DNA from: Gentiana macrophylla
Taxonomy: Eukaryota; Streptophyta; Magnoliopsida; Gentianales; Gentianaceae
DNA length: 64,000 bases
Reading direction: 5' to 3'
Assembly: GCA_026214975.1 (NCBI GenBank)
Contig: JAOBSW010001128.1
Location: 62,001-126,000, forward strand
The notes beneath the pieces are model-generated. The model was not told where the DNA came from. It made no database searches and saw nothing but the letters and a program-made list of their open reading frames with translations. Position 1 is the stretch's first letter. Each line of letters begins with the position of its first letter. Both the position numbers and the translations under genes were made by a program. This document shows positions 2,595-57,513 of this stretch, in pieces.

Positions 2595-3175
2595 GTGAAA
2601 CGAAGCCTAAAAACTAAGAAATTAAAAGCCTAAACTAAAAATTAAAAAACCTAAAGAAAAGAAAGGGGAAGAAAAAGGAAACAAAATTATTGAAGAAAAA
2701 GGGGCCAGACGGACGTCCAAGGGTTTGGACGGGCGTCCAGGTGGAATTTGGACTGGACGGGCGTTTAGTGGTCCAAACGCTCGTCTGAAAGGCAGAATAC
2801 TTGAGCGGGCGTCCAAATCTTATGGGCGCTTCGTCTAAGTGAATAAAAGCGAAATGAATTGATAAATTTCCAATGGACGGGCATCCAAGATATTGAGGGC
2901 GCCTGTTTGGTAGCGGGAAAACTAGAAACGAAGCGAAATTTGCGAGAAAGAAAAGAAGGTAAGACGAAAGGCGAGAAAAGCGAAAGAAAGACGATCCAAT
3001 TTCAAAGGAAACTACTAAGGGAAGGTCTTAAACCCTAACTAAACCCTAATTATCTACTTAGCAACTACCTAAAACAATTATCAACTAAAAACAGGAATTT
3101 AAAACGAAATAAAACCGGGAAAAACAGAAACAAACAGAAAAAAAACGAAAAACAAAAACTAGACAACCGTCCGGT
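2595..3175 (-). other. Untranslated leader of M1 with palindrome cluster
   Basis: This stretch between primer-binding site and gag has no credible gene. Between 2711 and 2890 it holds at least six imperfect palindromes, for example GGACGTCC at 2711-2718, GGACGGGCGTCC at 2727-2738 and GGACGGGCGTTT at 2755-2766, plus variants near 2774, 2805 and 2875. The remainder is purine-rich and unremarkable. Confidence 0.75.
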
Positions 3176-3193
3176 TCCCCGGCAACGGCGCCA
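3176..3193 (-). promoter_or_regulatory. Primer-binding site, tRNA-Asp (M1)
   Basis: Read on the minus strand this is TGGCGCCGTTGCCGGGGA, complementary to the 3' end of plant tRNA-Asp and the standard PBS of Athila and Tat elements. It starts six bases after the LTR end (ACA). Confidence 0.93.
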
Positions 3194-3199
3194 AAAACT

Positions 3200-4729
3200 T
3201 GTCACGGATTTTATTAACACAAAACACACAAGTAATAATCCGGTTAACCTCAAGTATATGGATCGTAGTAATAGTGGTTAATGCCGGGTCGATCTTACGG
3301 GGAACTGGCAATTGCTAACCCTAGTTTTTGTTTAACTAACTAACCTATGTCACGATTACTAAACTAAACAGATATGAAAACAGTAAATAATTCACAAGAA
3401 AGATAGCAATAACGTAAACTGGACAGAAGATCGAGATCTAAAGCCAGGAAAAGTACGGGTTGCGAACTATTAAACTTAAACTAATTATGAAATAAAAGTA
3501 ACTAGACTAGGCAATTCGAGTTTCACGGGATTAAATTCAAATTTTAACGAACAAACGAGCGATTGATCCACCTATCCTAACAAGTATCAATTCCTATCTC
3601 GATTATATTGCGTTTTCTAACCAAGTTGTGGTTTTACCTTGTCTAAAGCATGAACCCTAATTTCTTAGGTGATTCACTTATTAATCTATATCTTTCGATC
3701 TAAGATTAACGATTTTACTAATCAAAGGTGTGAACTTTAACCTAGCAATTTAACCTATTAACTCTCGTTATGATAGATTAAACAACCATTCCTTCATCAC
3801 AATGATCTAGGGTTCATAGAGATTTTCATCAACACAAAACAATCATAACATGCAAGTCTTTCGATACAATTGCAATTAAACAATATAAACAATGATAAAG
3901 GAAACAACTTTAGATAAAACTCACAATATAATCGCAGAAACGGAATCAAAACGTGTCAGATGGCTTCACAATGCTCGTTTGATAAGGCTTTAGCCTCTCA
4001 ACATCACTTGATCAACTCTAAAAGCTTGAGAAAAGTACATAAATTTGAAGGTGTTTATCTAGAAATTAAAAGCATAAAAACTGGATGAAAACTAAAGTAA
4101 AACGCAGCTGAGCCGCCCCTAGGTTTAGGGTTTTTGTAATGTATTGTAATTGTGGAGAAAATACGCTGCCTTATATAGAATTCGAAGTCGGTTCAGCAAA
4201 GTCGGCTACCGGACGCCCGTCTGGAAAGGGTGAACGCCCGTCCAGCTTGTGTAATCTTCTTCGAGTCGGGCCGAGTCATGACCAGACGCCCGTCCTACCA
4301 GCGTCCACTCCAGCATCCAAACATCCTGAATCAAAGATGTCAACCTGGACGCTCGTCCACTTCATCAGACGCCCGTCCACTGGACGGAGATTCTGGACGC
4401 CAGTCCAACATGATCGAATTCTGATCTCTTTGATCTTTATCCCATTCTTTCATTATCTCTTTTGTCATCAATTAGCTCGAACTTAATCAACTTTTGATCA
4501 TCTTTTGAGCCTCAATCATGTATCTATAACACATAAAAACATCGCAAAATGTAATATCGCTCAAATAATCATAAAACACATAAATTAACCTATTTTGCGA
4601 TTAACTCATTTAAAATATCATTTACTCAATATTTCCATTAAACACTTATTTCTTATGCATTTTAGTACAAATTCGGGGGAAAATATCATAGAATATAGCG
4701 TTATAAATCGTATAAATTCACCCTTAACA
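3200..4729 (-). repeat. 5' LTR of M1 (1530 bp)
   Basis: On the minus strand the LTR begins TGTTAAGGGTGAATTT and ends CCGTGACA, giving TGT...ACA termini. It adjoins the PBS through a short spacer. It contains a TATA box near 4170 and, at 4211-4405, about six GGACGCCCGTCC-type palindromes with variable arms (4211-4222, 4232-4243, 4284-4295, 4347-4358, 4367-4378, 4394-4405). Only this LTR copy is in the window. Confidence 0.87.
4169..4178 (-). promoter_or_regulatory. Candidate TATA box in M1 LTR
   Basis: The minus strand reads TCTATATAAGGC here, a plant-consensus TATA box inside the LTR, suitable for RNA polymerase II initiation of the genomic transcript. Confidence 0.6.
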
Positions 4730-5018
4730 ATCATCAAGATCTCCAGGCCAGACGAGCGTTTACTATGACTCAAACGCTCGTCCGGCCCCGACAGCATCAG
4801 ATTTTGACCAAGCACTATGAATACGCAGCTCATTCAGCCCCTGAATATATCCTTTCGTCTTTAGACACTTTTGGGGCGATTTTGGTGCGGTTTTAGTGTA
4901 GGTTGATCATACTTTGATCCTCTGATTCCCTAGATAACATCCTTCGATTCTAAACACTTTTTATAGCATAGGTTCACGTTTTAAGTTCCAAAGATTCGAC
5001 TTTTGGTGCAATTATTTA
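4730..5018 (+). repeat. Left LTR of element A, first surviving part
   Basis: It is homologous to 12555-12845. It carries the paired palindromes AGACGAGCGTTT and AAACGCTCGTCC near 4750-4783. The TATA box seen in the right copy (CTATAAATACG) reads CTATGAATACG here at about 4816, so this copy's core promoter is mutated. It is followed by the inserted solo LTR. Confidence 0.8.
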
Positions 5019-7555: not shown

Positions 7556-7562
7556 AGAATTT

Positions 7563-7580: not shown

Positions 7581-7668
7581 GTAACGTTTAATATCTTTTA
7601 AGTTGACCGAAAGCTTGGGCTTAGGTCATTTTTATTATGTTTTCTTGTTGTTTCCTATTTTACAGTGA

Positions 7669-12240: not shown

Positions 12241-12615
12241 AAATCAAGGCAAACTGGAGTTTGCCCTACCCCAAACTGGCGTTTGAGTCAAGCTCTACCC
12301 AAACTGGCGTTTGGCCAGTACAAACGGGCGTTTAATAGAAGTGGAATTGATACTGAAAGTTAGAGTTTTAGACGGCCGAGCGTTCAAATCACCCCCAAAC
12401 TAGTGTTTGGATGCGTTCAGCCCGAATCAAGAAAGCTCATACAAGGCAAACTGGCGTTCAGGCAATCCAGACACTCGTTTGCCCTCAAGGCATGGTCCAC
12501 CAACCGAGCGTTCAAGGCATGTAAACGCTGGTTCACTAAAGACGAAACCCTAATATCATCAAGATCTCCAGGCCAGACGAGCGTTCACTATGACTCAAAC
12601 GCTCGTCCGGCCCCG
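12241..12615 (+). repeat. Palindrome cluster upstream of right LTR of A
   Basis: About ten short palindromes occur in about 370 bases. Clear ones are GCAAACTGGAGTTTGC at 12249-12264, CAAACTGGCGTTTG at 12282-12295, CCAAACTGGCGTTTGG at 12299-12314, AAACGGGCGTTT at 12322-12333 and the perfect CCAAACTAGTGTTTGG at 12395-12410. Later units mix arms of the AAA/TTT and GGA/TCC types. This part probably belongs to the start of the A LTR or its upstream UTR. Confidence 0.8.
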
Positions 12616-13668
12616 ACAGCATCAGATTTTGACCTAGCACTATAAATACGTAGCTCATTCAGCCCTTGAATATATCCTTTCAACTTTAGACACTTTTGGG
12701 GCGATTTTGGTGCGGTTTTAGTGTAGGTTAAACATACTTTGATCCCTTGATTCCATAGTTCATATCCGTTGATTCAACATACATTTTATAGCTTAGATTT
12801 ACGTTTCAAGTTTCAAAGATTCGACTTTTTGTGGATTAGTTCTTTATACTTTTTCAGATCAAATTTTGCTTCAATTATATGATGATGAATACTTTCTCTT
12901 TTATTATTTCTAGCATGATTTCAATTCTTTATTCCGTTATTACCATAATCATGAGTAGCTAATTGCATGTGTAGTCGAATTATGTGAAAGCGAGCGAGAA
13001 CCCTAAAGGGGGATGAGATTAGGAGTTGTGTAGTGTGTAATTGAATGTCTAAACGATTAATCCACGTCCTAAAACTTATTTAAAATCTTTGAATTAGATT
13101 GATCACCTAGTTCACTATCACACACATCGAACTTATAGATTCATTTTGCGGTGAGATGTGGGATAAGGGATTTTAGGATCGTTGCATAGATTCGGCCTAG
13201 TTGTTAGGTCCGTTTCCAATACAGAGGTTTGTCATCGTTGTTCAATCTTAATCATGTTAGGATAATCGGTTTTCTAAATGGAGAGTCGGTTAGCTTCACA
13301 TAGGGTGGTTAGATCGAGTTGTTCAGTCTAATCGCTAGAATTAGGAGTTGGCACCGGTGGATGTCGTTAAACTACATTGGATAGGTAGGTCGGTTAAGAC
13401 ACGCTCCCTGTCAAGTCCTTCCTAAGCGGTAAAAGTAGCTCGTGGGATCATAGTTCGGCTATACCTTTTAATACTTAAAAGTAAACACGTTAGTATAGTC
13501 TCTTTTTCTGCATCAGTATAATCCCTTCCACCGTTATTTTGACCTGAACTATGTTCGACGTCAGCTTTGGTACTTAGACATTACTCCCTGTGGATTCGAC
13601 CTTGTGACCACTATACTCCCGTTGACCCGATACTCTGTCAGTGAAAGTTAGCGGTTAAGTATTTTGCC
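12549..13668 (+). repeat. Right LTR of element A
   Basis: It aligns with 4730-5018 plus 6715-7555 without the solo-LTR insertion. It ends at TTTTGC, lacking the final TAGCA of the left copy, and passes directly into copia-derived sequence. It has an intact TATAAATA at 12641-12648. The true LTR start probably lies upstream of 12549, because the left copy is truncated at that point by M1. Confidence 0.8.
12641..12648 (+). promoter_or_regulatory. TATA box in right LTR of A
   Basis: GCACTATAAATACG is a good plant TATA element. The left LTR has G in place of the third A of TATAAA, so the two LTRs differ at this site. Confidence 0.55.
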
Positions 13669-22975: not shown

Positions 22976-25090
22976 TGATCAAATTCCGACTTTCGGGAAA
23001 GGGCAGACGTGTCTTTTTGCGAAAACGAAATATTAGGTTCGGTTTCCTTTTATTCGGAGTTAATTATTTTGGACATTATATATTTATATATTCTCGAAAT
23101 TTTATATATGTAATTAAAAGGAAAATCAGTTTTGTGGTCAAGGGCAATTAAGGAAAATGGTTAACTCCTTTTTAATGCTAAGACCTAACCTAATTCAGGG
23201 ATTTTCAGTTTGATTTCAGCCTTCCCCCTCCCCTTGTGCGGCATTGTGAGGAGAGAAAGAGAGAAAAGAGAGTTCTTCACAATTCTAAGAGGTAGAGTTG
23301 ATCGTTTTCAAAGCGGATTCAAGAATTGGACTCGCGTGAAGAGCACTGACATTTTTGGCATCAGTTTTGTGGGGTTGCAGCAGTTTTTCAGAGCAGTATT
23401 GATCAGTTTTGGGGCTGCAAATAGGTAAGAGAAACAGCCCTATGAATTCTATCATTTGTTATAAGGAATTGATCATGTTTTAAGGCTTCTTGGTGTTAGA
23501 AATATGAATCTTTGTTTTGATTAAAGACTATGGTTGTTACAGTACGTCTAGATGTGGATCCTTGTGTTGTTTTGTTGGTTATTTGCTGGTTTTGGGTTGA
23601 ATTACGATCTGGAAATCGCATGATGATGAAGTTAGGGTTTTGGTCGAACCAGGTGGGACGGGCGTCGGTTCTGCGGACGGGCGTCCGCTTAGGTCGAATC
23701 TCAGACGGGCGTCTGGCTTATCCGGACGGGCGTCTGAGGTGCAATTTTACATTCAGGATTGAACTGTTTTGGGTGGACGAGCGTCCACTATTTTGGACGG
23801 GCGTCCAGTAAACTGAACGGGCGTCCAGGTCTTTAAACGGGCGCCCGATTTTGTACGCCTCCTTTCTATTGTTAATCGTTGTTCACCAAATATACATGCT
23901 TTACTTACTTGAGATATATATACGATATGTTAAACATGGTATAACTTAGACAAGCTTGGATTGAGCTTACGATTCGTTCGATTAAAACACCGAATGTACT
24001 CTTAAAGGGAGTTGAAGTTCGGATCCGTCGGGAAGAGCATGATAGGCTTGTGCTTTGATGAATTAGTATTCATCAATGTCTATGTATGTGCTAGGACTTG
24101 TCCGTGTCTAGTGGTCTAAGAAGAGAGTAGTTGTGTGAGGAGAATACTTGAAAATACTCGGGTTGGCTAGCTAATAACCTAATAAACAACGTATGTGACT
24201 AGTAAAAGATTAAACAACATGTCCCTCTTGGCTAGGCACCGAGGCTAAATCGCGATGCATGTGCTACCTCTCGAAGGTAGAAGAACCGTGAGTCAAAAGA
24301 CCCTAAGTGCGGAGGGACTCTGCTTTGAGGTGTGCGTGCTATCGGAGTCTACCTTTTCTAGACTTCGTGGATATTGGTGTGATCCACTAATATGTTGCAA
24401 AAGAGTGTTCCCAAGGTAGAAGAACTCTGAGGTCAAAGACCCTAAGTACAGAGAGGACTCTCTTTGGGGATCTTGGCGTAGTACCCTTGAGTGCGGTTGT
24501 AACATAGATAGGCTAAGTTAAGCGATTAGTCACAGCGTGTTGATGAGCATGAAGTGAACCCTAGATGGAGTTGGTCTCGGTTAATCAACTAATTAAATAA
24601 TTATCTTTTTCGTTATAACTATGATTGCTTTCATAGCTTCTCTTTCTTTCTAAGCACGTTGTACTTACCTCGAATGCATACTTTTTTTCTATGTGTTTGG
24701 GGACGAGAAGGCGAAACAGTTTTCGAGGAAGAGTTTGCGACGACGTTTGACGCCGCTCGTTGAAGAATCAAGATGTTTCTTTTCTGCTTCTCTTTGGTTG
24801 TACTTTCCGTACTTTTGAGGTAGACTACCGGTTTGACGTTTTGTCGTATTCTGTCTTTTGGGATTTTCGTACTTTTCCAAATGTAATAATTTACATTTCT
24901 ACCCTTAGATTTCTTTTCTACTCTTTAATTTTGGGAAAAATTTTATATACCCGAGTTTTGCTTCCGTTTTGCCTTTGATTTGATACGACGTAGTAGAGGC
25001 TTACGTATAAAATGAATTTACTTTTATTTTATACGTGCCGAACGTTTCTTTTCCGGATAAGGACTCGGTGTCCGGGAACGGGGCGTTACA
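22976..25090 (+). repeat. 5' LTR of T1 (2115 bp)
   Basis: It runs from TGATCAAATTCCG to GGGGCGTTACA and matches 29828-31937. The first bases differ from the 3' copy (TGTAATATTCCAC). It holds a palindrome array at 23655-23847. Reading frames in it, including a Trp/Val-rich one at 23530-23811, are not genes. Confidence 0.88.
23655..23847 (+). repeat. Array of CGGGCG-core palindromes (T1 5' LTR)
   Basis: Nine units of 12 bases lie about 20-40 bases apart. Examples: GGACGGGCGTCC (23675-23686, 23795-23806), AGACGGGCGTCT (23703-23714), GGACGAGCGTCC (23775-23786), GAACGGGCGTCC (23816-23827), AAACGGGCGCCC (23836-23847). Arms change in a complementary way around the constant core. The 3' LTR repeats the array at 30499-30694. 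Confidence 0.9.
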
Positions 25091-25092
25091 GT

Positions 25093-25104
25093 TGGTATCA
25101 GAGA
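25093..25104 (+). promoter_or_regulatory. Primer-binding site, tRNA-iMet (T1)
   Basis: TGGTATCAGAGA lies two bases after the LTR end GTTACA. Confidence 0.9.
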
Positions 25105-25185: not shown

Positions 25186-26690
25186 ATGGTAACGACAAGA
25201 GAGGCGTTCGTGAGCCTGGGAGCTCGAGGGGTTAGTCAAGGGTAGGAGCCCAGTGCCCGTAGTAGGGGCGGATTTGTGAGGCGAGAATCCTTCGCCTCGT
25301 TTGAGTCTTCGCCACCACCCCATACTGACCACACCTATACCAAGGTCTCAACAAGATGTGTCACCGAGGCGCATCGAATCGCCACCCGACCACCGCCAAG
25401 ATATAACTACATTTATGGAGAGCCTGGACAAGCACCTATTCGTGTCAACATGTAGTAGGCGACATTCCACCGATTAGTGCGCCACCACCGGTGACCAATG
25501 TGTATCCACCACCATCTAGTGCTTATCCTCCGGTGTATCCTCGGTGCAGCAGGTCTTCTACCCTCCTCCTCAGGACATGTTCCTCAACCTCTGAGCACCA
25601 CCTTCACCACGCTTTGACCACCAAAGCAAGGCGTCGGTCATCCACCCTTTGGTTTCAGCCAGACCTCAACAAAGATCGGGCCTTATCGGGGTACTATCCG
25701 TATCGAGAATGAGCCTCAAGTAATCCCACCTTATCCTCAACATCGCGATATCGGCCGCATGTATCTTTTGGTTACCCTCCGGTTCACCCACCGATTAGAC
25801 CGACTTTCGAGCAAGCACCGGTGGATTGGATTATACAAGATTGAGGAGAAATCGGGTTGAGAACTTCTTTGGTAATGTGGAGCATTCTAAAGCGAGGAAT
25901 GGATAAGAGGATTTGAGAAAGCTTGTAGGAACATACATGTTCCTCGAGGCAGAAATGGCACGACTAGCGATCGGTTTTATGTTGGGAGCGGAGAAGCATG
26001 GATTGATGCCGTCCAGCAAAGAACGGTAAGGTAACGGATTGGGAAGGGTTCAAGGCGATGTTTTATAATGAGTACTTCCCGGTTCTGATTCAAGCGAGAT
26101 AAAGCAAGTCAATTCTGAAGAAGCACAAGCAAGGTAATCACCGACGATGGCCCAAAGATATACTAATAAATTCAATGAGTTAGGAAGGTTCTATCCGGAA
26201 TTGATGAAAGTGGAAGAGAGAAAGATGGCCCTCTATAAGGATGGGTTGGCCTACGAGATTCAGTCGGGCATGCTAGGATTCACGGCAAGGAATATGGCAG
26301 AGTTGATGAATAAAGCCTTGGAAGTCGAAACTTTCAGGAAGAGAGCTACAGTGGTTGTAAATAATAAGAGAAATTTTGGGACAAGTCAAGGTAGTTATAG
26401 GGGAGCGCCACAGCAAGCAGCCAAGAAGACTACAGCTCCTCTACAGCCTAAGGCTCGACAAGTGCACCACTTTGCCCCAAGTGCAACAGAAATCATACAG
26501 GAGAGTGCAGGCAGAGTAGTAACGGTTGTTACGTTTGTGGTGAGCAAGGACACTTTTCTAGAGCGTGTCCAAACAGAGGAAACAAGAGTGGTTCGAGCCA
26601 AGGTAGCGGAGGAGCGGCCCGAGCCGACCGGTTCGAGTTTTTGCAAATGGATGCTAATTTTGTGGAACCAGAGGATGACGTTATTTCAGG
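25186..26690 (+). pseudogene. gag of T1, frameshifted
   Basis: Gag likely starts at the ATG at 25186 (MVTTREAFVSLGARG). The N-terminal and proline-rich part is broken by stops and shifts. The C-terminal half is readable at 26147-26460: YTNKFNELGRFYPEL, ALYKDGLAYEIQSGML, MAELMNKALEVE, the usual chromovirus gag core. The zinc knuckle CYVCGEQGHFSRAC (26527-26568, C-X2-C-X4-H-X4-C) is intact but in another frame. Confidence 0.82.
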
Positions 26691-26767
26691 TACCATGTTT
26701 TGTTTCATTCTTTTGTTAAGATATTTTATAGCGTGATTATTCATGTTGTAACTATATTTAAATAAAT

Positions 26768-29030: not shown

Positions 29031-29793
29031 TCCGAGAGGACCATCCGCACACTCGAGGACATGTTGAGGGCTTGTGTTTTGGAGGTAGGCGGATCATGGG
29101 ACGATTACCTATCGGTAGCGGAGTTTGCCTACAACAACGATTTTCATGCAAGTATAGGCATGCCGCCCGTTTGAAGCGTTGTATGGGAGAAGATGTCGAC
29201 GCCATTGTTTTGGGATGAAGTCGGGAGAGGCAGATTACAGGGCAGAGATGGTTGAACAAGCAAAGGAAAGGGTTCAATTTGGTCAAGAAGAATCAAGCGG
29301 CACAAGACAAGAGACAGAAAAGTTGGGTGATGTTAGAAGAAGACCTCTTGAGTTTGAAGTCGGCGATAGAGTTTACCTCCGGCTTCGCCAATGAAAGGAG
29401 TGAAACGCTTTGGACAAAAAAGGAAAGCTAAGTCCAAGGTATGTTGGACCTTTTGAGATTTTGGAGAGAGTTGGGACGTTAGCTTATAAGCTTGGTTGCG
29501 AGAATCAATGTCGAGAGTCCATAATGTGTTTCACGTTTCGATGTTGAAAAAGTGTGTCGGCGAAGAATGATGTGGAAACTACGGTTGACCCAGAAATCTT
29601 ACAAGATAATCTTGCTTATGACGAGAGACCGATCAAGATCCTAGACCGGAAAGAAAAGATGATTAAGAGACGGATGATCCCTTTGGTGTTAGTTCAGTGG
29701 AGCAATCATTCACCCGAGGAGGCAACTTGGGAAGTGGAAAGCGACATGCTTAGTGAGTTCCAAGAATTTGGGGATTTACCAGGTATGTTCTAG
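29031..29793 (+). pseudogene. Integrase C-terminus and chromodomain of T1
   Basis: After the break near 29020 the integrase continues in other frames (RTLEDMLRACVLEVGGSW, EFAYNNDFHASIGMPP, LEFEVGDRVYLRL, YVGPFEILERVGTLAYKLG). The last frame, 29554-29793, holds VDPEILQDNLAYDERPIKI followed by VLVQWSNHSPEEATWE, the Tekay-type chromodomain-like tail thought to direct integration to particular chromatin. The stop at 29791 precedes a purine tract (AAGTGGGGAGAA) and the 3' LTR. Confidence 0.83.
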
Positions 29794-29827: not shown

Positions 29828-31937
29828 TGTAATATTCCACTTTCGGGAAAAAGGCAGACGTGTCTTTTTGAAAACGAAATATTAGGTTCGGTTTCTTTTA
29901 TTCGGAGTTAATTATTTTGGACATTATATATTTATATATTCTCGAAATTTTATATATGTAATTAAAAGGAAAATCAGTTTTGTGGTCAAGGGCAATTAAG
30001 GAAAATGGTTAACTCCTTTTTAATGCTAAGACCTAACCTAATTCGAGGATTTTCGTTTGATTTCAGCCTTCCCCCTCCCTTGTGCGGCATTGTGAGGAGA
30101 GAAAGAGAGAAAGAGAGTTCTTCACAATTCTAAGAGGTAGAGTTGATCGTTTTCAAAACGGATTCAAGAATTGGACTCGCGTGAAGAGCACAAGCATTTT
30201 TGGCATCGATTTTGTGGGGCAAAGCAGCTTTTTTGAGCAAGATTGATCAGTTTTGGGGCTGCAAATAGGTAAGAGAAACAGCCCTATGAATTCTATCATT
30301 TGTTATAAGGAATTGATCATGTTTTAAGGCTTCTTGGTGTTAGAAATATGAATCTTTGTTTTGATTAAAGACTATGGTTGTTACAGTACGTCTAGATGTG
30401 GATCCTTGTGTTGTTTTGTTGGTTATTTGCTGGTTTTGGGTTGAATTACGATCTGGAAATCGCATGATGATGAAGTTAGGGTTTTGGTCGAACCCAGGTG
30501 GACGGGCGTCCGGTTCTCTGGACGGGCGTCCGCTTAGGTCGAATCTCAGACGGGCGTCTGGCTTATCCGGACGGGCGTCTGAGGTGCAATTTTACATTCA
30601 GGATTGAACTGTTTTGGGTGGACGAGCGTCCACTATTTTGGACGGCGCGTCGATAAAGCGAACGGGCGTCTGTGTCTTTAAACGGGCGCCCGATTTTGTA
30701 CTGCCTCCTTTCTATTGTTAATCGTTGTTCAGCCAAATATACATGCTTTACTTACTTGAGATATATATACGATATGTTAAACATGGTATAACTTAGACAA
30801 GCTTGGATTGAGCTTCTGATTCGTTCAGTTAAAACACCGAATGTACTCTTAAAGGGAGTTGAAGTTCGGATCCGTCGGAAGAGCATGATAGGCTTGTGCT
30901 TTGATGAATTAGTATTCATCAATGTCTGTGTATGTGCTAGGACTTGTCCGTGTCTAGTGGTCTAAGAAGAGAGTAGTTGTGAGAGGAGAATACTTGAAAA
31001 TACTCAAAGTTGGCTAGCTAATAACCTAATAAACAACGTATGTGACTAGTAAAAGATTAAACAACATGTCCCTCTTGGCTAGGCACCAGGCTAAATCGCG
31101 ATGCATGTGCTACCTCTACGAAGGTAGAAGAACCCGTGGGTCAAAAAGACCCTAAGCACGGAGGGACTCTCTTTGAGGTGTGCGTGCTATCGAGTCTACC
31201 TTTTCTAGACTTCGTGGATATTGGTGTGATCCACTAATATGTTGCAAAAGAGTGTTCCCAAGGTAGAAGAACTCAGAGGTCAAAGACCCTAAGCACTGAG
31301 AGGACTCTTTGCGAGGGATGGGCGTAGTGCCCTTGAGTGCGGTTGTAACATAGATAGGCTAAGTTAGAAACAGATTAGTCACAACGTGTTGATGAGCATG
31401 AAGTGAACCCTAGATGGAGTTGGTCTCATTTAATCAACTAATTAAATAATTATCTTTTTCGTTATAACTATGATTGCTTTCATAGCTTCTCTTTCTTTCT
31501 AAGCACGTTGTACTTACCTCGAATGCATACTTTTTCTATGTGTTTGGGGACGAGAAGACGAAGCAGTTTTCGAGGAAGAGTTTGACGACGACGTTTGGCG
31601 CCATTTCGTTGAAGAATCAAGATGTTTCTTTTCGCTTCTCTTTGGTTGTACTTTCCGTACTTTTTGAGGTAGAGACTACGGTTTGACGCTTTGTCGTATT
31701 CATCTTTTGGGATTTTCGTACTTTTCCAAATGTAATAATTTACATTTCTACCCTTAGATTTCTTTTCTACTCTTTAATTTTGGGAAAAATTTTATATACC
31801 CGAGTTTTGCTTCCGTTTTGCCTTTGATTTGATACGACGTAGTAGAGGCTTACGTATAAAATGAATTTACTTTTATTTTATACGTGCCGAACATTCTTTT
31901 CCGGATAAGGACTCGGTGTCCGGGAACGGGCGTTACA
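29828..31937 (+). repeat. 3' LTR of T1 (2110 bp)
   Basis: It runs from TGTAATATTCCAC to GGGCGTTACA, directly after the polypurine tract at 29815-29827. It aligns over its whole length with 22976-25090. Differences are mostly small, localised and often at CAG/CTG versus CG sites. Confidence 0.9.
30499..30694 (+). repeat. Array of CGGGCG-core palindromes (T1 3' LTR)
   Basis: It is the counterpart of 23655-23847, starting with GGACGGGCGTCC at 30500-30511 and 30520-30531. One unit reads GGACGGCGCGTCGA where the 5' copy has an intact palindrome. Confidence 0.88.
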
Positions 31938-33026
31938 GCTGCGTTCTTGAGCACCAAGAACCCTAATTACAGCCGCACTCAAAAGCTCCTTACGTCATCG
32001 AATTTTGCTGCTATTTTCGCAACCCTAGCTGTTCTTGAAATCCAAGAAACCCTTGTGCAGATCGTGTACAGCCCTAGCATCATAAAAAGCTGCGTTTTTA
32101 GTCCTGAAATTCTGTTCTTGCGAGGAATCATCTGCTGCGTTCTTGGAAGATTATTTGCAAGTTGCTGCAATGGATAAACTACGTGCAACTTTCGACAACA
32201 TCCATCTGAGACTTGAGCGACATCAAGTTGAATCCGATCAAAGACATCTTTGAAATTATATCCGCCACTAAATGCATTACATGACAACCTCGATCCACGA
32301 CGTGAATTAGAACGTATTGCGCAACGGAAATTAGAGGCAGAACAACGGAAATTAAAACGTGCAGAACATTGGAGGAAATTAGACGCAAAGTGGAAGGCGG
32401 ACGATGAACTTTTCTTTATCCCGTATGGTGTAACACGTGAAGAAGCTATGGTGGCAACCGCCCAAATTCTCTCCTTCACATGCTAAATCGAATAAGCAGT
32501 TATTCCCAACCCCCTACGGCCGTGTGGTACACGAGGAGGTTGACATTCTTATTGTTGATTCAGCCACGAGAAGAGTTCATTGAGGTTCCTAATGCACTTA
32601 CTAATGATGTTGTTCCGATTCGCTATTGGTTCTCCTTTACCGGTACCCGACCATTCTGACGAGATTGCCGACGTCAAGGTGGATATTGGTGTTGACCCAA
32701 TCACTATGCCCGTGGACATACTTGCTGAATCGATTGTGGTCCAACCGGGGACCAAACCGGTGCACTCCGATGGTTCAAAGGTGCACTCGGCAATTTTAGT
32801 TGCTGATTTGAAGGCGTTACAAGCACCACAAGTATATGTGGATCCATATTTACAGTATTGCCGCCCTTTGGATTTTGTTGTCGCTGCTTTCTCCACTCTC
32901 GCCATTCCATGTTTTTGCGATGTTGTGATTCTGAGTTTCTCCGTGGTTGAGTGGACGTATGGAAGCACGATATTCGTGTTCGATCCGGATTGATTCGAGG
33001 ATGAATCCTTTTGAAGCGGGAGGGAA
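31938..33026 (+). pseudogene. Interior of element E with gag-like remnant
   Basis: After T1 the E interior resumes. An ATG at 32170 opens MDKLRATFDNIHLRLERHQV, a gag-like start, broken after 27 residues. A second piece (about 32260-32486) is a basic, charged helix (LERIAQRKLEAEQRKLKRAE) followed by DDELFFIPYGVTREEA. A third frame (32580-32993) encodes 137 residues without a known domain. The stop at 32991 is followed by a purine tract (GAAGCGGGAGGGAA) and the LTR. No protease, RT or integrase is seen. Function is unknown. Confidence 0.5.
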
Positions 33027-33983: not shown

Positions 33984-34654
33984 TGATATACTACTTTTAT
34001 ATGATTAAATATATGTTATATTATTATGTTTTATCAACGAATTCTATATAAAATATATGAAATTATGATATAAATGTTATGAAATGTTAATCTTTATAAT
34101 TTAGAGTAGTTAGTAGTAAAACTTAGTAAAAAGTTATCATTTTGTACCGATTTTAGTAAATCGGAGTGTCGTGTCAGATTTACGTGGGTATTTGTGGTAT
34201 TTTATTGCAGATTTATAAACCGAGACCCCGAGAATCGACATGTTAAAGTATAAACATATCTCTGGAAGGATTTAGAGAGTGTCACGAGCTTAAATGGTCA
34301 ATCGAATTGCTTAAATGGTCAAGTGGTCAATCGAAGTGGTCAAGTGGCTAATCGATTCGATTAAGTGGTAATCGAGAAATATCTTCGACAAACGAATGGC
34401 TCATCAAAACGACATTATCTAAAGAAGAGTCCTTCACGAAAGTTGTAGATTTTCCCGAGAGCTTTCCGATGCCTCTTGAATCATGATTTTTGGAGATCCA
34501 AAACTCGAGATATGAATTTTAGAAGTTTGATAATTATATATAAAAATATATAATCATACGGAGCATATGCTGATTAATCAAGGAGGTGGAAGCCATCATT
34601 ACACCGGACTGGTCCGGCTAGTTCTCGGCCCGGTCCGGCCAAGGAATTCACTTC

Positions 34655-42270: not shown

Positions 42271-42394
42271 TAAAAAAGCAAAAAGAGAAACGAAATCCGC
42301 CAAATACCAGGTGCTATCTATCTTTACTCTACTTTTCTGTGTTTTTATGTTTAAACTCTTTTCGTCTTTTACCGGATAGACGTAAAAGAACTGG

Positions 42395-42817
42395 ATGTCT
42401 TTTTTAGATAGATTAGGAGTTTTTGTGTTACTTTTGAAATTAGGCCTTGATAAAGATGTCGCATTTTCTATAGAAGCTTTAGTTTTTGAACAAAACAAGA
42501 AATTGTTAAGAGAGATTAGATTGAGAGAGGTTTGTAATGGAACATCAAGAAGTGCAATGAAAAGAAGGGCTAAGTTTTTGATGAGATGCAGACTCTGTGG
42601 AAAAAGTAAACATGTTGGACGCTGTGGGAAAAACACAACCAAATCCCAGGATGAGTGTTTGAATATTGTTAGGAAGGGAACGATTAGGTGGTTATCCGAA
42701 AATCCCGATGGAATTCCGAGAGATAATTCAAATGCTTCGTTTTTAGGAGTTAGGTTGATTGAACGTTATATCAGAACTCTGGAAGATTTAGAAATCGAAG
42801 AATCAGGAACCCCTTAA
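42395..42817 (+). CDS. Small Cys/His ORF between pol and env-position ORFs
   Basis: An intact 140-residue frame lies 125 bases after the pol stop. It is basic in the middle (SRSAMKRRAKFLMRC) and has CRLCGKSKHVGRC, a C-X2-C-X4-H-X3-C arrangement one residue shorter than a retroviral zinc knuckle. The tail is acidic (TLEDLEIEESGTP). I do not recognise the family. It could be a nucleic-acid-binding accessory protein, or a stray exon joined to pol: sequence before the ATG (CTTTTTTAG) resembles a splice acceptor and AAAAAGGTAAAAA near 42257 a donor. Its integrity among broken neighbours is notable. Confidence 0.5.
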   Translation: MSFLDRLGVFVLLLKLGLDKDVAFSIEALVFEQNKKLLREIRLREVCNGTSRSAMKRRAKFLMRCRLCGKSKHVGRCGKNTTKSQDECLNIVRKGTIRWLSENPDGIPRDNSNASFLGVRLIERYIRTLEDLEIEESGTP

Positions 42818-43488
42818 GTTTCGAGTCTTTTCTTATGTTTTATTTTATAAAATTTTCGCATAACTTCTGAAAATTTTATAAAATTGGATCTTTATGAAAT
42901 TTGAGGAGTTTTATAAAAGTTTTTTTTAGTTTTAATTTAGATGTTTTATAAGAGTTAATATGAATTTATTAAATTTTTATAAGCTTTTTATTAAGTGTTA
43001 TAAAAAATTTATTAAATTTTCAGAAATTGTTATAAAATTATAAGATTTCCTTCAAATTTTTAAGATTTTATTAAGTTTTAAAAAATTATTATAAACTTAT
43101 CTTTAAGATTTTAATCAAGTTTTATAAGAATTTTATAAGTTTTAATCAAAAAATCATAAAAAGTAAAAAATCGGAAAAAGTGAAAAAAAAAAATGGGCAC
43201 GGACCGATCCGGCCTTAACTCGGACCGGTCCGGGGTCTAAAAACATAAAAAACGGGGAATCCCTTTTCTTCTTCTTCTTCCCTAATTTTCTAAACAAACA
43301 GCCGAAATTTTTCTTCAATTCTTCCACAAAAATTCATCTCACACTACACCACTACTTGATTTCTTCCTACATTCATCTCCTCTCTTCACACAAGTTGAGA
43401 AAATCAAAAAGGATCAAAAACAAGCTTCAATCTTTTCCGGGACTTTACAACTTTTCCGGCCTACTTTTCAACGTTTTCTACATATTAA
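42818..43488 (+). other. Spacer with GC-rich palindromes before env-position ORFs
   Basis: This AT-rich stretch has no gene. At 43200-43212 and 43221-43234 it holds CGGACCGATCCGG and CGGACCGGTCCGGG. It ends with a pyrimidine-rich, leader-like sequence. It could be a promoter or leader for a separate env-region transcript. Confidence 0.5.
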
Positions 43489-43635: not shown

Positions 43636-45109
43636 ATGGCTGAGTCGAGTAAGAAAGCCTCTAAAAAGCGTAAATCAAACATTCCTATATCAACTCCGGT
43701 CGTAGGCACTATAATTTTATCATCTGAAGAAGAAGCCGTAAGCTTTGATAAAACAGCATCACAAGAGGCTAAGAATGCGTATAAAAGAATTTATAGTAAA
43801 TGTGATGTTCTAGTTGAAAAAGGATTAGATTTGGATGACTTAGGTGATGAAGTTAAAGATATCTTTTATTAAACGTCAGTGGTTAGAACTAGCAGCTAGA
43901 AGAGAAGGGGAGATTAACACGACTTTAGTAGCTGAGTTTTATTCGGTTTTATCTACTTTGTCACAAGATGAGCTTACTAAGTCACAAACTGTACCCCTAA
44001 GAACTAGAAATGTTCCTTTTAACCCTGCCGTTATTAATGCAATTCTAGGAGTTGAAGTTTTTTCTGATGAGGAGGATTACAGGGTAGTTTGGAATTTAGA
44101 TGATCCTGCAAGCTTTGAGCAGACTGCCCTAAGAGCTCAGAACGCTTTTGACCCAACCGCTGTGTGGGTTGAAAATCGGTTTAACTACGGGAACTATATT
44201 AGAGGTTTGAGGGCAATTAAAAGATTTATTAGCCATAATCTCTATCCTTCTAGTAAACATACTGCATATGGAAAGGAAGATGTTTGTATCGCTTGGGCGA
44301 TGGTGAATGATGTTAAGGTGGATGTTGGAAAGGTCATGTTTAAAAGAATTTTTGAAAGTATTGTCATCGCCAGACCAGGGAGTCATCTGTACTTCCCTTG
44401 TTTTATCTCAGATTTATGTCGTAGGGTGGGAGTACCAGTCCTGCCCAATGACAAGTTATCTCTGGCAGATGCAAATCTGATTGGACCAAGTTTGACCAGG
44501 CTTCCGGATGGTAGTATACGCTCTTTGATTAGAAGCCGTCAAACTCAACCAGCTCCACCAGTTTTCACATCTTCTTCCTCTTTTCCATCTTTTTCTAGTC
44601 AGCCTCAACAAACTTCTTTCTCCAACACAATCACCTATGATATGTTTCAATCTTTAGTATCAGACGTTGCACGTGGTCAAGCCAACATGGCTTTGTATGC
44701 TGAGAGTAATAGGCAGTGGTGTGATGATATTCGTAGAGGTTTAAGGAGGAACGAGCAGTTGCTTCGTAATCCTACCTTTGATGATCCTGCCTATCCACCT
44801 TGTCAGTCAGATCCGTATACCTTACCAGATTGGGTAGCGCCTATTCCACCACCTTCGAGCTTTCATCCATCGTCATATCCTTTTGGGAGCCAATCTAGTG
44901 GAACAGGTGTATTTTCGACAGGTGATCAGAGACCAGCGATGTCTAGTTGGGGAGGATTCACTGAGTTTGCACATATCACGACTGGCATGAGTTCGATGGG
45001 TCTTGATAGTTCAGTCAGGACCACGACTACAGTTCAGCCACCAGCTTCTCAGTCGTTTCCAAGTTCAAGCTTTCATGTCGATCCCGAGGAAGACTATGAA
45101 GAAGATTGA
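43636..45109 (+). pseudogene. Env-position ORF 1, plant transposon-protein domain
   Basis: The likely start is ATG 43636 (MAESSKKASKKRKSN), with a basic, nuclear-localisation-like N-terminus. An alternative start at 43558 would add a hydrophobic segment (TFLFFVVVFVV), but it lies in the candidate intron. A frameshift near 43865 moves to the frame ending 45109. That part holds RQWLELAARREGEINTTLVAE, FNPAVINAILGV, VWNLDDPASFEQTALRAQNA and IARPGSHLYFPCFISDLCRR, the pattern of the 'putative plant transposon protein' domain found in Athila env-position ORFs. The C-terminus is Ser/Pro/Gln-rich. No signal peptide or fusion peptide is apparent. Function is unknown. Confidence 0.72.
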
Positions 45110-45641
45110 ATTTTGTGACTTTGTTTGATTAAACATTTTTACTGCACATTTTTTCGACATTTTCATTCAGATATTGGTATGTTTTCGTTTTCGTTTATTT
45201 TGATCGTATTATCTAAATATGGTTTGCATTCTAAATCGTTTTAATTTTTATAAACTATAAAAAAACCCAAAAATAATTTTTGTATCATTTCTATGTCGTT
45301 TTACAAAAATATAATGTGTCGTTTTATCAGTCGTATCAAGTAGAACAAGCTTTATATCTTCAAAAAGGTAAGGATTATTCCACACGTGAAGTAAAAAACC
45401 AAAACACAACTTGTCTTTTACCTCTGTCCTCAGTAAAAGGAAGATGAGGCCGGACCGGTCCGGCTCATTGTCGGCCCGAGCCGTGAAGAAGAATGGGGTG
45501 AGTCATTCTTGAGCCCGTCTAGTGCATCCACGTATGTATAATTTTCTATCTATTAAAAGAGTTCAGGGCATGAGAAACCATTCCATACCTTTACTTTCTA
45601 TCTACTTTCAATTTTTTTTACTTTTCATCTAGCTTTTAAAA
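45110..45641 (+). other. Spacer between env-position ORFs
   Basis: Non-coding. It carries the perfect 16-base palindrome GCCGGACCGGTCCGGC at 45449-45464, followed by TCGGCCCGAGCCG. A T-rich leader precedes the next ATG at 45642. Confidence 0.6.
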
Positions 45642-46472
45642 ATGTCGAACCAATCATCTCCATCTGTAAATTCATACGAGCCTCACACTCCGGATGCTCC
45701 GGAATCTTAAGCTTCTAACGAGAATATCATTTTACACCCTCGTTTTGCTAATTCTCCAATCCAGTTGGAGAAAGGTTTAAATTTCGATAAAATTGATCGA
45801 TGGGGTAAAACGATTATTCGAGGATTTGGCGGGAAAAAGTTCGTCAGTACGCCAAGAGGAAGGATAAATGTCTCGATAGTTCGAGAATTTTATTCCGCTC
45901 TAATGACGACATCCATGTTCGATATAACTCAAATTGTCTCGGTAAGAGGAGTGGTTGTTCCCTTCTCTTCATCTATTATCAACCAACTATTTGAAATTCC
46001 ACCTGTTACGATGCAGCATTTTGAGATGAAATGGGGCTTACAAAATTCGTATAATCATTTGAATAAAGTACATGAGTCTTTCCAATGTCTGTTTCCACTT
46101 TTCGACACAAATCACGAAATGTCTACAAGAGCTTTACTTCCACATCTAAAGGCGTGGAAGCATTTCATTAATTCTAGAGTATATCCCAGCTGGGATTTCG
46201 GGAGCCTTAGTGAAAATGAAATGCTTCTACTTTATGCTTTGGCAATTGGTGAATTTGTTGATTGGGGTATTTTGATCCAAAGGACAGTGTTGGAGTTTGC
46301 AATCACGAGAGGCAGTAGGGGGAAACCTATGCCTAATGCTTGGATGATTTCGCGTCTGTGTACTCAATTGAATGGAGTGGTAGAGCTTGGGACGGATGAA
46401 ATTTTTCCGTCGAGAGATAACAGAGTTGGTTTGTTACCGGTTGATACACCGGGTTGTTCATCTACGATTTAG
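45642..46472 (+). pseudogene. Env-position ORF 2, paralogue of ORF 1
   Basis: The frame starts at ATG 45642 (MSNQSSPSVNSYEPHTPDAP) and is open to 46472 except for one TAA at 45708-45710. The body resembles ORF 1 in layout: GRINVSIVREFYSALMTTSM aligns with the LVAEFYSVLSTLS segment, VVVPFSSSIINQLFEIP with VPFNPAVINAILGV, and LKAWKHFINSRVYPS with LRAIKRFISHNLYPS. It lacks the Ser/Pro-rich tail. It appears to be a second, diverged copy of the same domain, each with its own leader. Function is unknown. Confidence 0.7.
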
Positions 46473-48381: not shown

Positions 48382-49088
48382 TGATATACTACTTTTATAT
48401 GATTAAATATACGTTATATTATTATGTTTTATCAACGAATTCTATATAAAATATATGAAATTATGATATAAATGTTATGAAATGTTAATCTTTATAATTT
48501 AGAGTAGTTAGTAGTAAAACTTAGTAAAAAGTTATCATTTTGTACCGATTTTAGTAAATCGGAGTGTCGTGTCAGATTTACGTGGGTATTTGTGGTATTT
48601 TATTGCAGATTTATAAACCGAGACCCCGAGAATCGACATGTTAAAGTATAAAAATATCTCTGGAAGGATTTAGAGAGTGTCACGAGCTTAAATGGTCAAT
48701 CGAATTGCTTAAATGGTCAAGTGGTCAATCGAAGTGGTCAAGTGGCTAATCGATTCGATTAAGTGGTAATCGAGAAATATCTTCGACAAACGAATGGCTC
48801 ATCAAAACGACATTATCTGAAGAAGAGTCCTTCACGAAAGTTGTAGATTTTCCCGAGAGCTTTCCGATGCCTCTTGAATCATGATTTTTGGAGATCCAGA
48901 ACTCGAGATATGAATTTTAGAAGTTTGATAATTATATATAAAAATATATAATCATACGGAGCACATGCTGATTAATCAAGGAGGTGGAAGCCATCATTAC
49001 ACCGGACTGGTCCGGCTTGTTCTCGGCCCGGTCCGGCCAAGGAATTCACTTCTATATAAAGAGCACATTTGCAAACAGAGCGGGGGTA

Positions 49089-52150: not shown

Positions 52151-52159
52151 ATCGCTACC

Positions 52160-54733: not shown

Positions 54734-54782
<49 letters not shown>

Positions 54783-55460
54783 CACGACTGAGAAGATAAC
54801 TCATTGGATTAGTTATATAAACATAAAATAAAAATAAAGACAAAAATAAAAGTAAAATAAAAATAAAAATAACAATAAAAGTAACAACTGGATTAAGGAC
54901 CAGTTGGACGGAACAGTATTAAACGATCGTGAGAACCCCCAATCTTGTTGAAAGAGTCACCACAGATCTCACGGAACAATAAGTAGTCTGTTGACGGAAA
55001 CAGCCGTTCATATGTCGGAATAGTATCCACTATGAAGGATGTCCGGCAAAGAGAAAAATAAAATAAAAAGGTGGTGCTATAATCGCAGCCACATGTGTAT
55101 TAGATGATAGTAATTAGGTAAAGAAGCTACCTTTATAGAATAATAGTAGATCTGAAACTTTGACTACCGGTTACGGGAAAACACCGCTCACCAGAGTTGT
55201 GATACAAGTTCCATGTGGAATCAAACTTCAAAACAAGTCCAAGTTGGACTTAAATTCAAACTTAAAGATCAAGTTAAATTTGAATCTAACTTATTTATAG
55301 TATAGAAGAAAGATCAATCAAGAACATTACAAGAATTATAGTAATTGAAAGAAGAAATTGAAAAGTATAAAAGAGTTGGAGGTTTTTGGCTTCAAAGAGA
55401 GTTTTCTTTCTTTGTTTTTCTTCTCTCTTTTTTCACCTCCCTAAAAATGAACCCAAGCTT
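54251..55460 (-). other. Unclassified repeat-like region
   Basis: There is no readable gene. It has a GGTTGGGTT-rich stretch (54235-54360), a TA repeat (54739-54781) and an A-rich stretch (54820-54890). The minus strand near 55200-55440 reads like a transcript leader downstream of the TATA-like site at 55463. Its origin is uncertain. Confidence 0.35.
54739..54781 (+). repeat. Microsatellite (TA)n
   Basis: About 21 TA units. Confidence 0.9.
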
Positions 55461-55462
55461 TT

Positions 55463-55471
55463 CCTTATATA
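55463..55471 (-). promoter_or_regulatory. Candidate minus-strand TATA box
   Basis: The minus strand reads CCTATATAAGGAAAAGC. Upstream of it are two copies of an imperfect direct repeat, GTAAG(A/G)TTCTCTTA(C/T)TATTCATGCTTG (about 55500-55570). The layout resembles the promoter of a plant pararetrovirus or an LTR. Confidence 0.4.
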
Positions 55472-55689
55472 GGAAATTTGGGTGCCAATAAAGGCAAGCA
55501 TGAATAATAAGAGAATCTTACTTTTGCCAAATAGTCAAGCATGAATAGTAAGAGAACCTTACTTTAATAATGCATAAATAGTAAAAGGCACTTATAGTTG
55601 GAAATATGGGTCCCATGTTTCTATTACTTATCTTCAACCGTAACTTGCTTCGTAGAATAGATCTTCAGTTGATAGAAAAGATAATTGAA

Positions 55690-56225
55690 GTATTCCCGAT
55701 TTTCTCTCTTTAGGAAAGGAATTAGTTTCTCCTAGCCATGATATCAATATATTTGTACTAGTTGACTAAATTGAAATATCTAGTTTCAACCTCAATAGGA
55801 GAGTATAACATATTCCTTATAATGTTGCATGGGTCTTCCATATAGAATTTGTATATCATGTTCTGGAAGGCAAGTTTGCTGCTTATCCAAGAATTTTGGA
55901 GATGTTGTATTTCCCATAGGTCAAAAGACAGAGTTCGCGGTCTCCAGTTATCAATTTGTCTTCTTTTTGGCTGTTGGCATTCAAGTTAATAATAATATTC
56001 ATGAAGCTTTGAATATGCTTCCACACTCTTAAGGAATATTACTTGTCTTGCTGGCTCAAATTTGTGACCAATCCATTCTGGAGATTTCGATTCAATATTC
56101 GCAAGCACCCATGCTGGTCTTTGAGTTGTTTGAGAGTGAAATTTTTGAACCATGGTGATAACCTTCTCTCCCAAGCAGCTTTGCTTAGCAGTATTTCAGA
56201 TGTTTGGAAAAGGATACAATCTACC
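55690..56225 (-). pseudogene. Unrecognised coding remnant, possibly pararetroviral
   Basis: The minus strand has a readable stretch at 56174-55986 (RPAWVLANIESKSPEWIGHK) and a further frame with DNWRPRTLSFDLWEIQH. Codon texture suggests real but decayed coding sequence ending shortly before the TATA-like site. I cannot assign it to a family; a caulimovirid relic is one option, based only on the following promoter-like sequence. It is cut at 56225 by the T2 LTR. Confidence 0.3.
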
Positions 56226-57366
56226 TGTGACACCCCTGTCCCGGATACCGAGTCCCTATCCGGAAAAGAACGCCCGACACGCATATAATTAAATTTTAAT
56301 CTAGTTATACACGTAAGCCTTACGTAAGCAGACATCAGAGAACAAGTGGAAGACAAAACGACTGACTCGGGTAACGGAAACGACTAATAAACGATCGCGA
56401 GTAACACATGCTGCATTTATTACTTCATCAAAAGACTTATTATAACATCAAATACAAATAGAATCCACTACATCATGACATCCATAAACTGAATCCACTA
56501 TTATTCCAACAGTACAAGGGATGAGAGAATCTACACCAAAATTACAATACAGTAAAGAATAATAAACTCCGTCTGCGTCATCTCTGGGTCACTCTTCAGT
56601 GGCCTAAAAAACAACCTACAAACACCACCTTCTCGGGGTGGGAACAAGAAAGAAGAGGGGGTAAGTACATACGTACTTAATAAGGGGTAGAAGAAACGGT
56701 TACACGGTATATTTATATATATAAGACACATCAAGATAAAGCCTACAATCTCTACCACATAGGTTGCATTGAGATCACGCTCACCCTCTACTAGATCACA
56801 TAGTACAACCTCACACACATAAATTTGTTACATCAATACCAAATGACACTACGACGGTGAACAATCGCACCGCAACACGGGAAGCACTCTCGAGGCACGG
56901 GCTTAGGTCCCCGTGTGGGAGTCACACGCGTCCCTTGGCATCAGACCAAGTAGATGAGTGTAATAGTCCCATGCTAAGAAGAATAAACGTGCCTCACCAA
57001 TGATATTGACGTTTTAGATTTTAGACACACACATATGTAAGTTACGAGTTTAAGTCTAACCACCTGATTCATTCACATAAAAAGGCTTCTTAGGGACTTC
57101 TAGTCCTAGACATCTAATTAACTACCTAGCACGTTGTAAAGAGATCATTGACTACTAAGTCAATGTCCCACAAGGCCTAAACAAAGCCTTCCGGTGCTCC
57201 CACCTTCTCCCCGCAGAGGGTCTCAGTTGTGGTACGATTTGATACCAAGGCTACCAGAAGTCAATGTTAGATATTGACAGTTAACATATAATGACCTCAA
57301 GGGCATACATACCAATCAATAACATGTTGTACACAAAGCAATATCTAAACAAGGTGAACAGACACC

Positions 57367-57513
57367 TTTGGCGCCTACAAACCTTGTCCAGAACTTAACA
57401 TACCATTCTGCCCCACTATTGGCGCCCGCCAAACCTCCTTGGCGTCCGCCAAGAGTGAACAGAGTCACACCGCATGCTTTTGGCGCCCGCCAACCACCGT
57501 TGGCATCCGCCAA
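57367..57513 (-). repeat. Array of TTGGCGCCCGCCAA palindromes (T2 LTR)
   Basis: Five units in about 147 bases: TTTGGCGCCTACAAA at 57367, TTGGCGCCCGCCAA at 57419-57432 and 57480-57493, TTGGCGTCCGCCAA at 57439-57452 and TTGGCATCCGCCAA at 57500-57513. The core CGCCCG is the complement of the CGGGCG core in T1, with different arms. Confidence 0.9.

What the first reader, a model, noticed from the sequence alone, without database searches (positions are those of the whole stretch)
2711..57513. Unrelated LTR families carry arrays of core-conserved, arm-variable palindromes
Clusters of 12-16-base palindromes occur in non-coding parts of at least four families: Athila M1 (2711-2890, 4211-4405), Athila-like A (4750-4783, 12249-12605), Tekay T1 (23655-23847, 30499-30694) and Tekay T2 (57367-57513). 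The centre is usually CGGGCG or its complement CGCCCG. The arms vary but stay complementary: GGA/TCC, AGA/TCT, AAA/TTT, TTGG/CCAA. Paired arm changes around a fixed core suggest selection for a hairpin or a dimer-binding site. Units are spaced 20-40 bases apart in AT-rich DNA and contain CpG. Possible roles: binding of a host or element protein, RNA packaging or dimerisation, or silencing targets. I know of no name for this motif class.
Basis: partly seen in the sequence, partly recalled or inferred. Interest (0 to 1): 0.8.

Follow-up and report, generated by a model that had tools for sequence, protein, structure and literature searches.

The report
Palindrome-box promoter arrays in retrotransposons
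Several kinds of jumping gene in this plant genome carry, often near their start-of-transcription signal, rows of short mirror-image DNA boxes set at fixed distances, which look like landing pads for paired proteins that switch the elements on.

Summary
The palindromes are real and extreme: RRACGNNCGTYY occurs 26 times in the window against 0.31 expected. In the 1.79-Gb source genome GGACGGGCGTCC occurs 31,551 times, the reversed word twice. The hairpin argument is only partly right. Within the window's arrays, arms match little better than re-dealt arms (78 of 117 against 71.8, p 0.08), and related copies break pairs far more often than they compensate. Between families, whole half-site classes switch on both arms: TGGCGNNCGCCA has 3,398 sites, the chimera TGGCGNNCGTCC is near background (433, control 371).

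The stronger finding is a rigid layout: units 20-22, 28 or 50-52 bp apart, with ATWCAG about 14 bp into the 51-bp gap. That composite occurs 3,707 times; reversed control 0, site shifted 6 bp 1. TTGGCG-type arrays share the scaffold (71, control 1). In M1 and A a TATA box lies 31-32 bp downstream.

Best reading: promoter-proximal enhancer arrays bound by dimeric proteins, analogous to the palindromic repeats of Sirevirus LTRs but in Ty3 elements, with a stricter layout. The binding protein is unknown.

The parts
3200..4729 (-). LTR of element M1 (TGTTAAGGG...CCGTGACA), primer-binding-site-like stretch just inside at about 3174-3199
   Evidence: read by eye; right boundary matches where homology of element A begins at 4730
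4210..4407 (-). M1 LTR palindrome array; sense spacings 28, 20, 63, 52, 21 (a degenerate unit 52 bp along the 63-bp step was read by eye)
4326..4331 (-). ATTCAG site 14 bp into the first long gap of the M1 LTR array
4172..4177 (-). TATA box (TATATA) 32 bp downstream of the last M1 LTR unit
2706..2909 (-). M1 leader array between primer-binding site and gag; orientation relative to the LTR module ambiguous (GG centres read inverted, the ATTC-like gap sequence reads sense)
   Evidence: relative L070
846..2606 (-). M1 gag-like open frame (Retrotrans_gag PF03732)
4749..4784 (+). pair of units in the first copy of element A's repeat (starts at 4730, where M1 abuts), 22 bp apart
12250..12609 (+). 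element A array, 12 units kept, first units of CAAACKGGCGTTTG type; spacings 22,28,21,52,23,51,21,33,21,52,22
   Evidence: 21-copy alignment A1
12350..12355 (+). ATACTG site 15 bp into the first long gap of the A array
12641..12648 (+). TATAAATA box 31 bp downstream of the last A unit
22983..25094 (+). 5' LTR of element T1 (second copy 29834-31941); edges are those of the BLAST match
23655..23847 (+). T1 5' LTR array, 8 units; spacings 19,28,21,51,20,20,20
30499..30692 (+). T1 3' LTR array, nearly the same layout (20,28,21,51,20,20,20)
23751..23756 (+). ATTCAG site 14 bp into the 51-bp gap of T1
29548..29793 (+). chromodomain-coding frame of T1 (PF00385, E 4.6e-7): T1 is a chromovirus
57368..57513 (-). 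T2 array, TTGGCGNNCGCCAA type; sense spacings 20, 41, 20, 51; no ATWCWG at offset 14; nearest TATA match over 600 bp away
34604..34638 (+). element O LTR pair CCGGACTGGTCCGG / TCGGCCCGGTCCGG, 21 bp apart, TATA box 16 bp downstream (second copy 49002-49036)
43199..43233 (+). element O internal pair upstream of accessory frame 43844-45109, 21 bp apart
45450..45484 (+). element O internal pair upstream of accessory frame 45711-46472, 21 bp apart (second unit degenerate, read by eye)
43844..45109 (+). accessory frame of element O (PF20167), stop to stop; a second is 45711-46472

Best explanation
The arrays are promoter-proximal enhancers of LTR retrotransposons. Each palindrome is an inverted pair of half-sites (YRRACG, TTGGCG or CCGGAC by family) around a 2-bp centre and is bound by a dimeric DNA-binding protein. 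Units are set at 20-22, 28 and 50-52 bp so that bound dimers and a second factor, on the ATWCAG(AGAGTT) site 14 bp into the long gap, assemble into one complex upstream of the TATA box and start element transcription. In element O the same boxes also sit before two accessory frames and probably drive internal promoters. Shown: the boxes, the spacing, the gap site, the TATA distance in M1, A, O and some genome loci, half-site class switching. Inferred: protein binding, dimerisation, activation, the identity of the binders.
For: Position: last unit to TATA is 32 bp in M1, 31 in A and 16 in O. In the sampled genome loci 18 of 74 array ends have TATA within 60 bp against 63 of 832 background tiles, and 12 of the 18 lie at +30 to +33. 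Layout: cross-array spacing coincidences 115 of 448 against 44.2 for jittered spacings, none of 5,000 trials as high. In 43 non-redundant genome loci 152 of 239 spacings of 80 bp or less are 20-22, 28 or 50-52. Gap site: ATWCWG at offset 13-16 in 26 of 46 gaps, shuffled mean 0.40, largest 4 of 2,000. Genome-wide composite 3,707 against 0 reversed and 1 with the site shifted 6 bp. The TTGG-type composite has 71 against 1. Phase: window spacings concentrate near a 10.2-10.6-bp period (R 0.67-0.68; no null computed, a period of 8 gives 0.58). Element O: matching pairs, 21 bp apart, at the LTR promoter and before both accessory frames.
Against: No protein or transcript was tested. T1's nearest TATA is 67-69 bp away and T2's over 600 bp. 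Of the 12 loci with TATA at +30 to +33, 9 match the M1 LTR, so that evidence is largely one lineage; 56 of 74 array ends have no TATA within 60 bp, though each array has two ends and at most one can face a promoter. The M1 leader array lies downstream of the presumed start. The 28-bp spacing does not fit a whole number of helical turns. T2 and the M1 leader lack ATWCWG at offset 14. Much of the shared layout could be common descent. The site pattern and spacing classes were chosen after seeing the data; the genome-wide counts were run afterwards.
Confidence: 0.6

Rival explanations
1. The palindromes are kept because they fold as RNA hairpins and act as templates or targets for small RNAs, as proposed for maize Sirevirus LTR palindromes.
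For: Arrays fold better than shuffles as RNA: z -2.1 to -5.3 over 8 stretches; three of the five longer arrays go below -40 kcal/mol per 110 nt (M1 LTR -51.2, T1 -49.2, T2 -54.8; M1 leader -37.8, A -29.9). The Sirevirus precedent and the -40 threshold are in PMC10760457 (passages read).
Against: Any palindrome array folds. Arms are not kept by compensation. No G-U bias (13 against 20 A-C). Spacing set to the base pair relative to a non-palindromic site is not expected of hairpins. PMC10760457 says maize Ty3 elements generally lacked an obvious structure peak.
Confidence: 0.15
2. The boxes are targets of an element-encoded sequence-specific activator or anti-silencing protein, as VANC is for VANDAL transposons; half-site classes switch as protein and target co-evolve.
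For: Half-site classes switch as a set while the scaffold stays. Element O carries two accessory frames, each preceded by its own boxes. VANC precedent: PMC5735166 and PMC10398659 (passages read).
Against: No accessory gene was identified in T1, which has boxes (not searched for specifically; T1 frame 26138-26719 has no Pfam match). O's accessory frames match only PF20167, no known DNA-binding domain; the model of one was useless (pLDDT 37). Boxes of one class occur in loci with no similarity to the window's elements, which fits a shared host factor better.
Confidence: 0.13
3. One enhancer module arose once and was passed between LTR families by template switching or nested insertion; the shared layout is mainly history, not constraint. 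This does not exclude the best explanation.
For: Gap spacers of T1-like and M1-like loci resemble each other around the site, and short T1-LTR matches to M1-type loci fall inside the array (they may be the boxes themselves).
Against: Spacers are otherwise diverged while distances hold, and half-site classes were replaced wholesale on the same scaffold; pure history would not keep distances while letters go.
Confidence: 0.35
4. RNA packaging or dimerisation signal.
For: One array (M1 leader) lies between primer-binding site and gag.
Against: The other arrays are in LTRs, upstream of TATA in M1, A and O. No compensatory changes in the A family.
Confidence: 0.04

Closest known systems
Repeated motif (RM) boxes of Sirevirus LTRs (Bousios et al. 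2010, PMC2829016; passages and section 9 read)
   Different: Reported there as Sirevirus-specific (Ty1/copia), in most with a CGG-CCG core. Here the carriers include a chromovirus and other Ty3-type elements, most boxes have RRAC(G)/CGTYY or TTGGCG half-sites, spacing is rigid, and a second non-palindromic site sits at a fixed place. Only element O has the CGG-CCG core in its window units throughout.
[quoted passage not shown] 2016; not held; seen only through PMC10760457 passages, otherwise recalled)
   Same: Palindrome arrays in the LTR cis-region that can fold.
   Different: The motif there is CACCGGACNNNGTCCGGTG; no small-RNA data exist here, and arm compensation was not found.
VANC target arrays of VANDAL DNA transposons (PMC5735166, PMC10398659; passages read)
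   Same: Short motifs at high density in non-coding parts, different motif per family, evolving as a set.
   Different: Those motifs (such as YAGTATTAY) are not palindromes, lie in one orientation, and the binding protein is encoded by the element; no such protein was found here.

Membership tests
Sirevirus RM boxes | carrier is a Ty1/copia Sirevirus | tested here: not met
   T1 has RT-RNase H followed by integrase zinc-binding domain and a chromodomain: a Ty3 chromovirus. O has RNase H before integrase. M1, A and T2 were not placed by RT.
Sirevirus RM boxes | palindromic box in many copies in the LTR | tested here: met
Sirevirus RM boxes | CGG-CCG core | tested here: not met
   met in O; not the symmetric core of M1, A or T2 units, present in some T1 units
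Sirevirus RM boxes | cluster shortly upstream of a TATA box | tested here: met
   M1 +32, A +31, O +16; not met by T1 (+67) and T2 (over 600 bp)
Sirevirus RM boxes | extra cluster 5' of an envelope-like or accessory gene | tested here: met
   O only, before both accessory frames
Sirevirus RM boxes | clusters define CpG islands | tested here: inconclusive
   arrays are G+C-rich (0.50-0.71) but CpG observed/expected (0.89-1.34) is not consistently above flanks
VANC-type target arrays | dense short motif in non-coding element DNA, motif differing by family | tested here: met
VANC-type target arrays | motif non-palindromic, one orientation | tested here: not met
VANC-type target arrays | element encodes the binding protein | not testable with these tools
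   accessory frames of O match only PF20167; model pLDDT 37
structure-conserved RNA hairpin | paired arm changes between related copies | tested here: not met
   depends on how seed units are treated

The most novel reading that the evidence does not exclude
Unrelated LTR retrotransposon lineages of one plant share an exchangeable enhancer module with a fixed scaffold (spacings 20-22, 28, 51; ATTCAGAGAGTT-like site; in part of them TATA about 32 bp away) whose palindrome half-sites are swapped wholesale between families. This would be a promoter grammar in which binding specificity is replaceable, driven by competition for different paralogous factors or by escape from trans-acting small RNAs.
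Probability: 0.35. Interest if true: 0.85.

Novelty: new variant of a known kind. Interest (0 to 1): 0.72.

Why it matters
What switches on plant Ty3 retrotransposons, which fill large genomes, is mostly unknown (recalled view of the field). A rigid, searchable promoter grammar with tens of thousands of exact boxes in one genome gives a direct handle: one binding assay could name the activator, and the half-site classes allow a test of whether elements diversify their binding sites to escape silencing. It also takes LTR palindrome arrays beyond Sireviruses.

Tried and rejected
Hairpin covariation was tested three ways. Window: 78 of 117 arm matches against 71.8, p 0.084. A-family alignment: no compensatory pattern. 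Genome loci (43 of 60 after removing near-duplicates): the result depends on whether units identical to the seed words are kept. Dropped: 201 of 375 against 206.1 (p 0.76) and 310 of 618 against 296.4 (p 0.09). Kept: 403 of 618 against 380.0 (p 0.009) and 514 of 852 against 462.9 (0 of 1,000 as high). Loci were chosen by perfectly paired seeds, so keeping them favours pairing and dropping them disfavours it. Across all 60 loci pooled, 474 of 981 against 378.2, which mixes families.

Rows dropped: of units listed, M1 LTR 6 of 9 kept, A 12 of 15, T2 5 of 7, M1 leader 8 of 8, T1 8 of 8; the second T1 LTR (8) and A's first copy (2) were left out as duplicates. An objective rule (exact RRACGNNCGTYY) puts 17 of 19 spacings of 70 bp or less in the same classes, and 27 of 31 with one mismatch; both T1 LTRs are counted there.

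A scan of viral contigs for paired boxes gave 27 stretches of G+C 0.56-0.73, unlike this plant (0.37); their genes were not examined. A protein search with O's accessory frame scored 7,998 candidates, none at E 0.001 or better. Its structure model was useless. No Rfam family at gathering score in the window. Genome counts for GGACGGGCGTTT and AAACGGGCGTCC and a genome search with the T1 array did not complete. Candidate binders were considered from recall only (LOB-domain, E2F, TCP families); none is claimed.
Full report
What was checked. RRACGNNCGTYY occurs 26 times in the 64-kb window, shuffles give 0.31 on average and at most 2; TTGGCGYCCGCCAA has 7 hits at 4 places against 0.18 expected. 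The source genome (1.79 Gb, 1,264 contigs) holds 31,551 exact GGACGGGCGTCC against 2 for the reversed word, and 5,251 AAACGGGCGTTT against 101. So the arrays are a genome-wide feature.

Carriers. T1 is a chromovirus: RT, RNase H, integrase zinc-binding domain and a chromodomain. T2 shares 96-97 bp (77%) with the T1 LTR end; the rest is unclassified. A fifth element, O (33984-54023), has protease, RNase H, integrase and two PF20167 frames; its Tat/Ogre-type label is inference. The M1 and A LTRs show no mutual match in the self-comparison (matches over 60 bp at E 1e-10). Of 60 loci fetched around seed words (all from the first 26.4 Mb of contig 1), 15 have no match to the nine window element pieces compared at E 1e-4, and 11 of these 15 hold a cluster of at least 3 units; most pieces are only 400-450 bases, so more families are likely but not proved. 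The host plant was not identified.

Arms. Within arrays the outer three arm positions match 78 of 117 times; re-dealing right arms within arrays gives 71.8 (p 0.084), re-dealing across arrays gives 53.0 (no trial of 5,000 as high, largest 75). Arms therefore follow the family's half-site more than the partner in the same unit. In 21 related copies of A's array, 1,280 pair cells are unchanged, 127 lose a Watson-Crick pair by a single change, 44 gain one, 23 go from one non-pair to another, 6 change on both sides to a pair and 27 on both sides to a non-pair. Unit arms differ from the majority at 8.6% of cells and spacers at 10.7%: only a mild difference. At class level the rule is strict: TGGCGNNCGCCA has 3,398 sites (control 117), but the chimera TGGCGNNCGTCC has 433 against a control of 371.

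Layout. Spacings repeat across arrays: M1 leader 20,28,20,28,22,50,22; M1 LTR 21,52,63,20,28; A 22,28,21,52,23,51,21,33,21,52,22; T1 19,28,21,51,20,20,20; T2 51,20,41,20, all in plus-strand order; O pairs 21,21,21 (last unit by eye). Cross-array coincidences are 115 of 448, against 44.2 for jittered spacings. In 43 of 60 loci left after removing near-duplicates, 152 of 239 spacings of 80 bp or less fall in 20-22, 28, 50-52. One 10-kb piece picked without reference to the motif (L050) holds a TTGGCG-type array spaced 20, 52, 21; that set is 20 pieces from the first 1.3 Mb of contig 1, not a genome-wide sample.

Second site. In 46 gaps of 49-53 bp, ATWCWG lies 13-16 bp from a unit end, in either reading direction, in 26; shuffled spacers give 0.40, at most 4. 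The pattern was chosen after inspection and one gap was added by hand. The genome-wide test that followed gave 3,707 exact composites, 0 in the reversed control, and 1 when only the site is shifted by 6 bp. TTGG-type arrays give 71 against 1; 42 of the 71 listed rows, counted by eye, carry ATWCAGAGAGTT, and many of these are copies of a few families. In the window the site is present in T1 (offset 14), M1 LTR (14) and A (15), absent in T2 and in the M1 leader.

Position. Distance from last unit to TATA: M1 32, A 31, O 16 in both LTR copies, T1 67-69; T2's nearest is over 600 bp away. Of 74 array ends with enough flank, 18 have TATA within 60 bp against 63 of 832 background tiles; 12 of the 18 are at +30 to +33, and 9 of those 12 loci match the M1 LTR.

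Structure. Arrays fold as RNA with z -2.1 to -5.3, which any palindrome array would. Sense-strand mismatches are 13 G-U and 20 A-C, so there is no sign that RNA pairing is spared.

Reading. A DNA-level, promoter-proximal enhancer with dimer sites and a second factor best explains fixed distances, the gap site and TATA proximity. Shared history through module exchange is likely part of the story and does not conflict with function. The closest known kind is the Sirevirus RM (PMC2829016), reported there as Sirevirus-specific and absent from classic retrotransposons; PMC10760457 says maize Ty3 elements generally lacked an obvious structure peak (passages). I saw no paper describing this in Ty3 elements in the listings of searches (16 and 17 list 20 of 83 and 15 of 32 papers) or in the passages read of PMC11963269, PMC11302176, PMC6911290 and PMC7264820, nor any plant paper with six box words searched (one hit, a bacterial paper, listing only). 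Only open-licence papers were searched.

Noticed in passing
33984-54023: A fifth LTR element (O) with RNase H, integrase, a viral nucleic-acid-binding-like frame (PF05515) and two PF20167 accessory frames, each preceded by a CGGAC..GTCCG palindrome pair like the one in its LTR.
   Followed up: partly
4245-4282 and 12410-12446: A second kind of 51-bp gap holds a different stretch (CTCGGCCCGACTC in M1, TTCAGCCCGAATCAAGAAAGCTC in A) that looks related between the two by eye; TCGGCCCG also occurs in O's second units.
   Followed up: partly
23775-23786 and 30620-30631: The unit after the long gap has an AG centre (CGAGCG) in T1 and in a number of the genome loci listed.
   Followed up: partly
42386-42817: Frame with carlavirus-type nucleic-acid-binding protein similarity (PF05515, E 7.6e-14; PF01623, E 3.2e-4) inside element O.
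   Followed up: no
L050:7778-7884: TTGGCG-type array with spacings 20, 52, 21 and an ATTCGAGAGAGTT sequence in the gap, in a locus picked without reference to the motif.
   Followed up: yes
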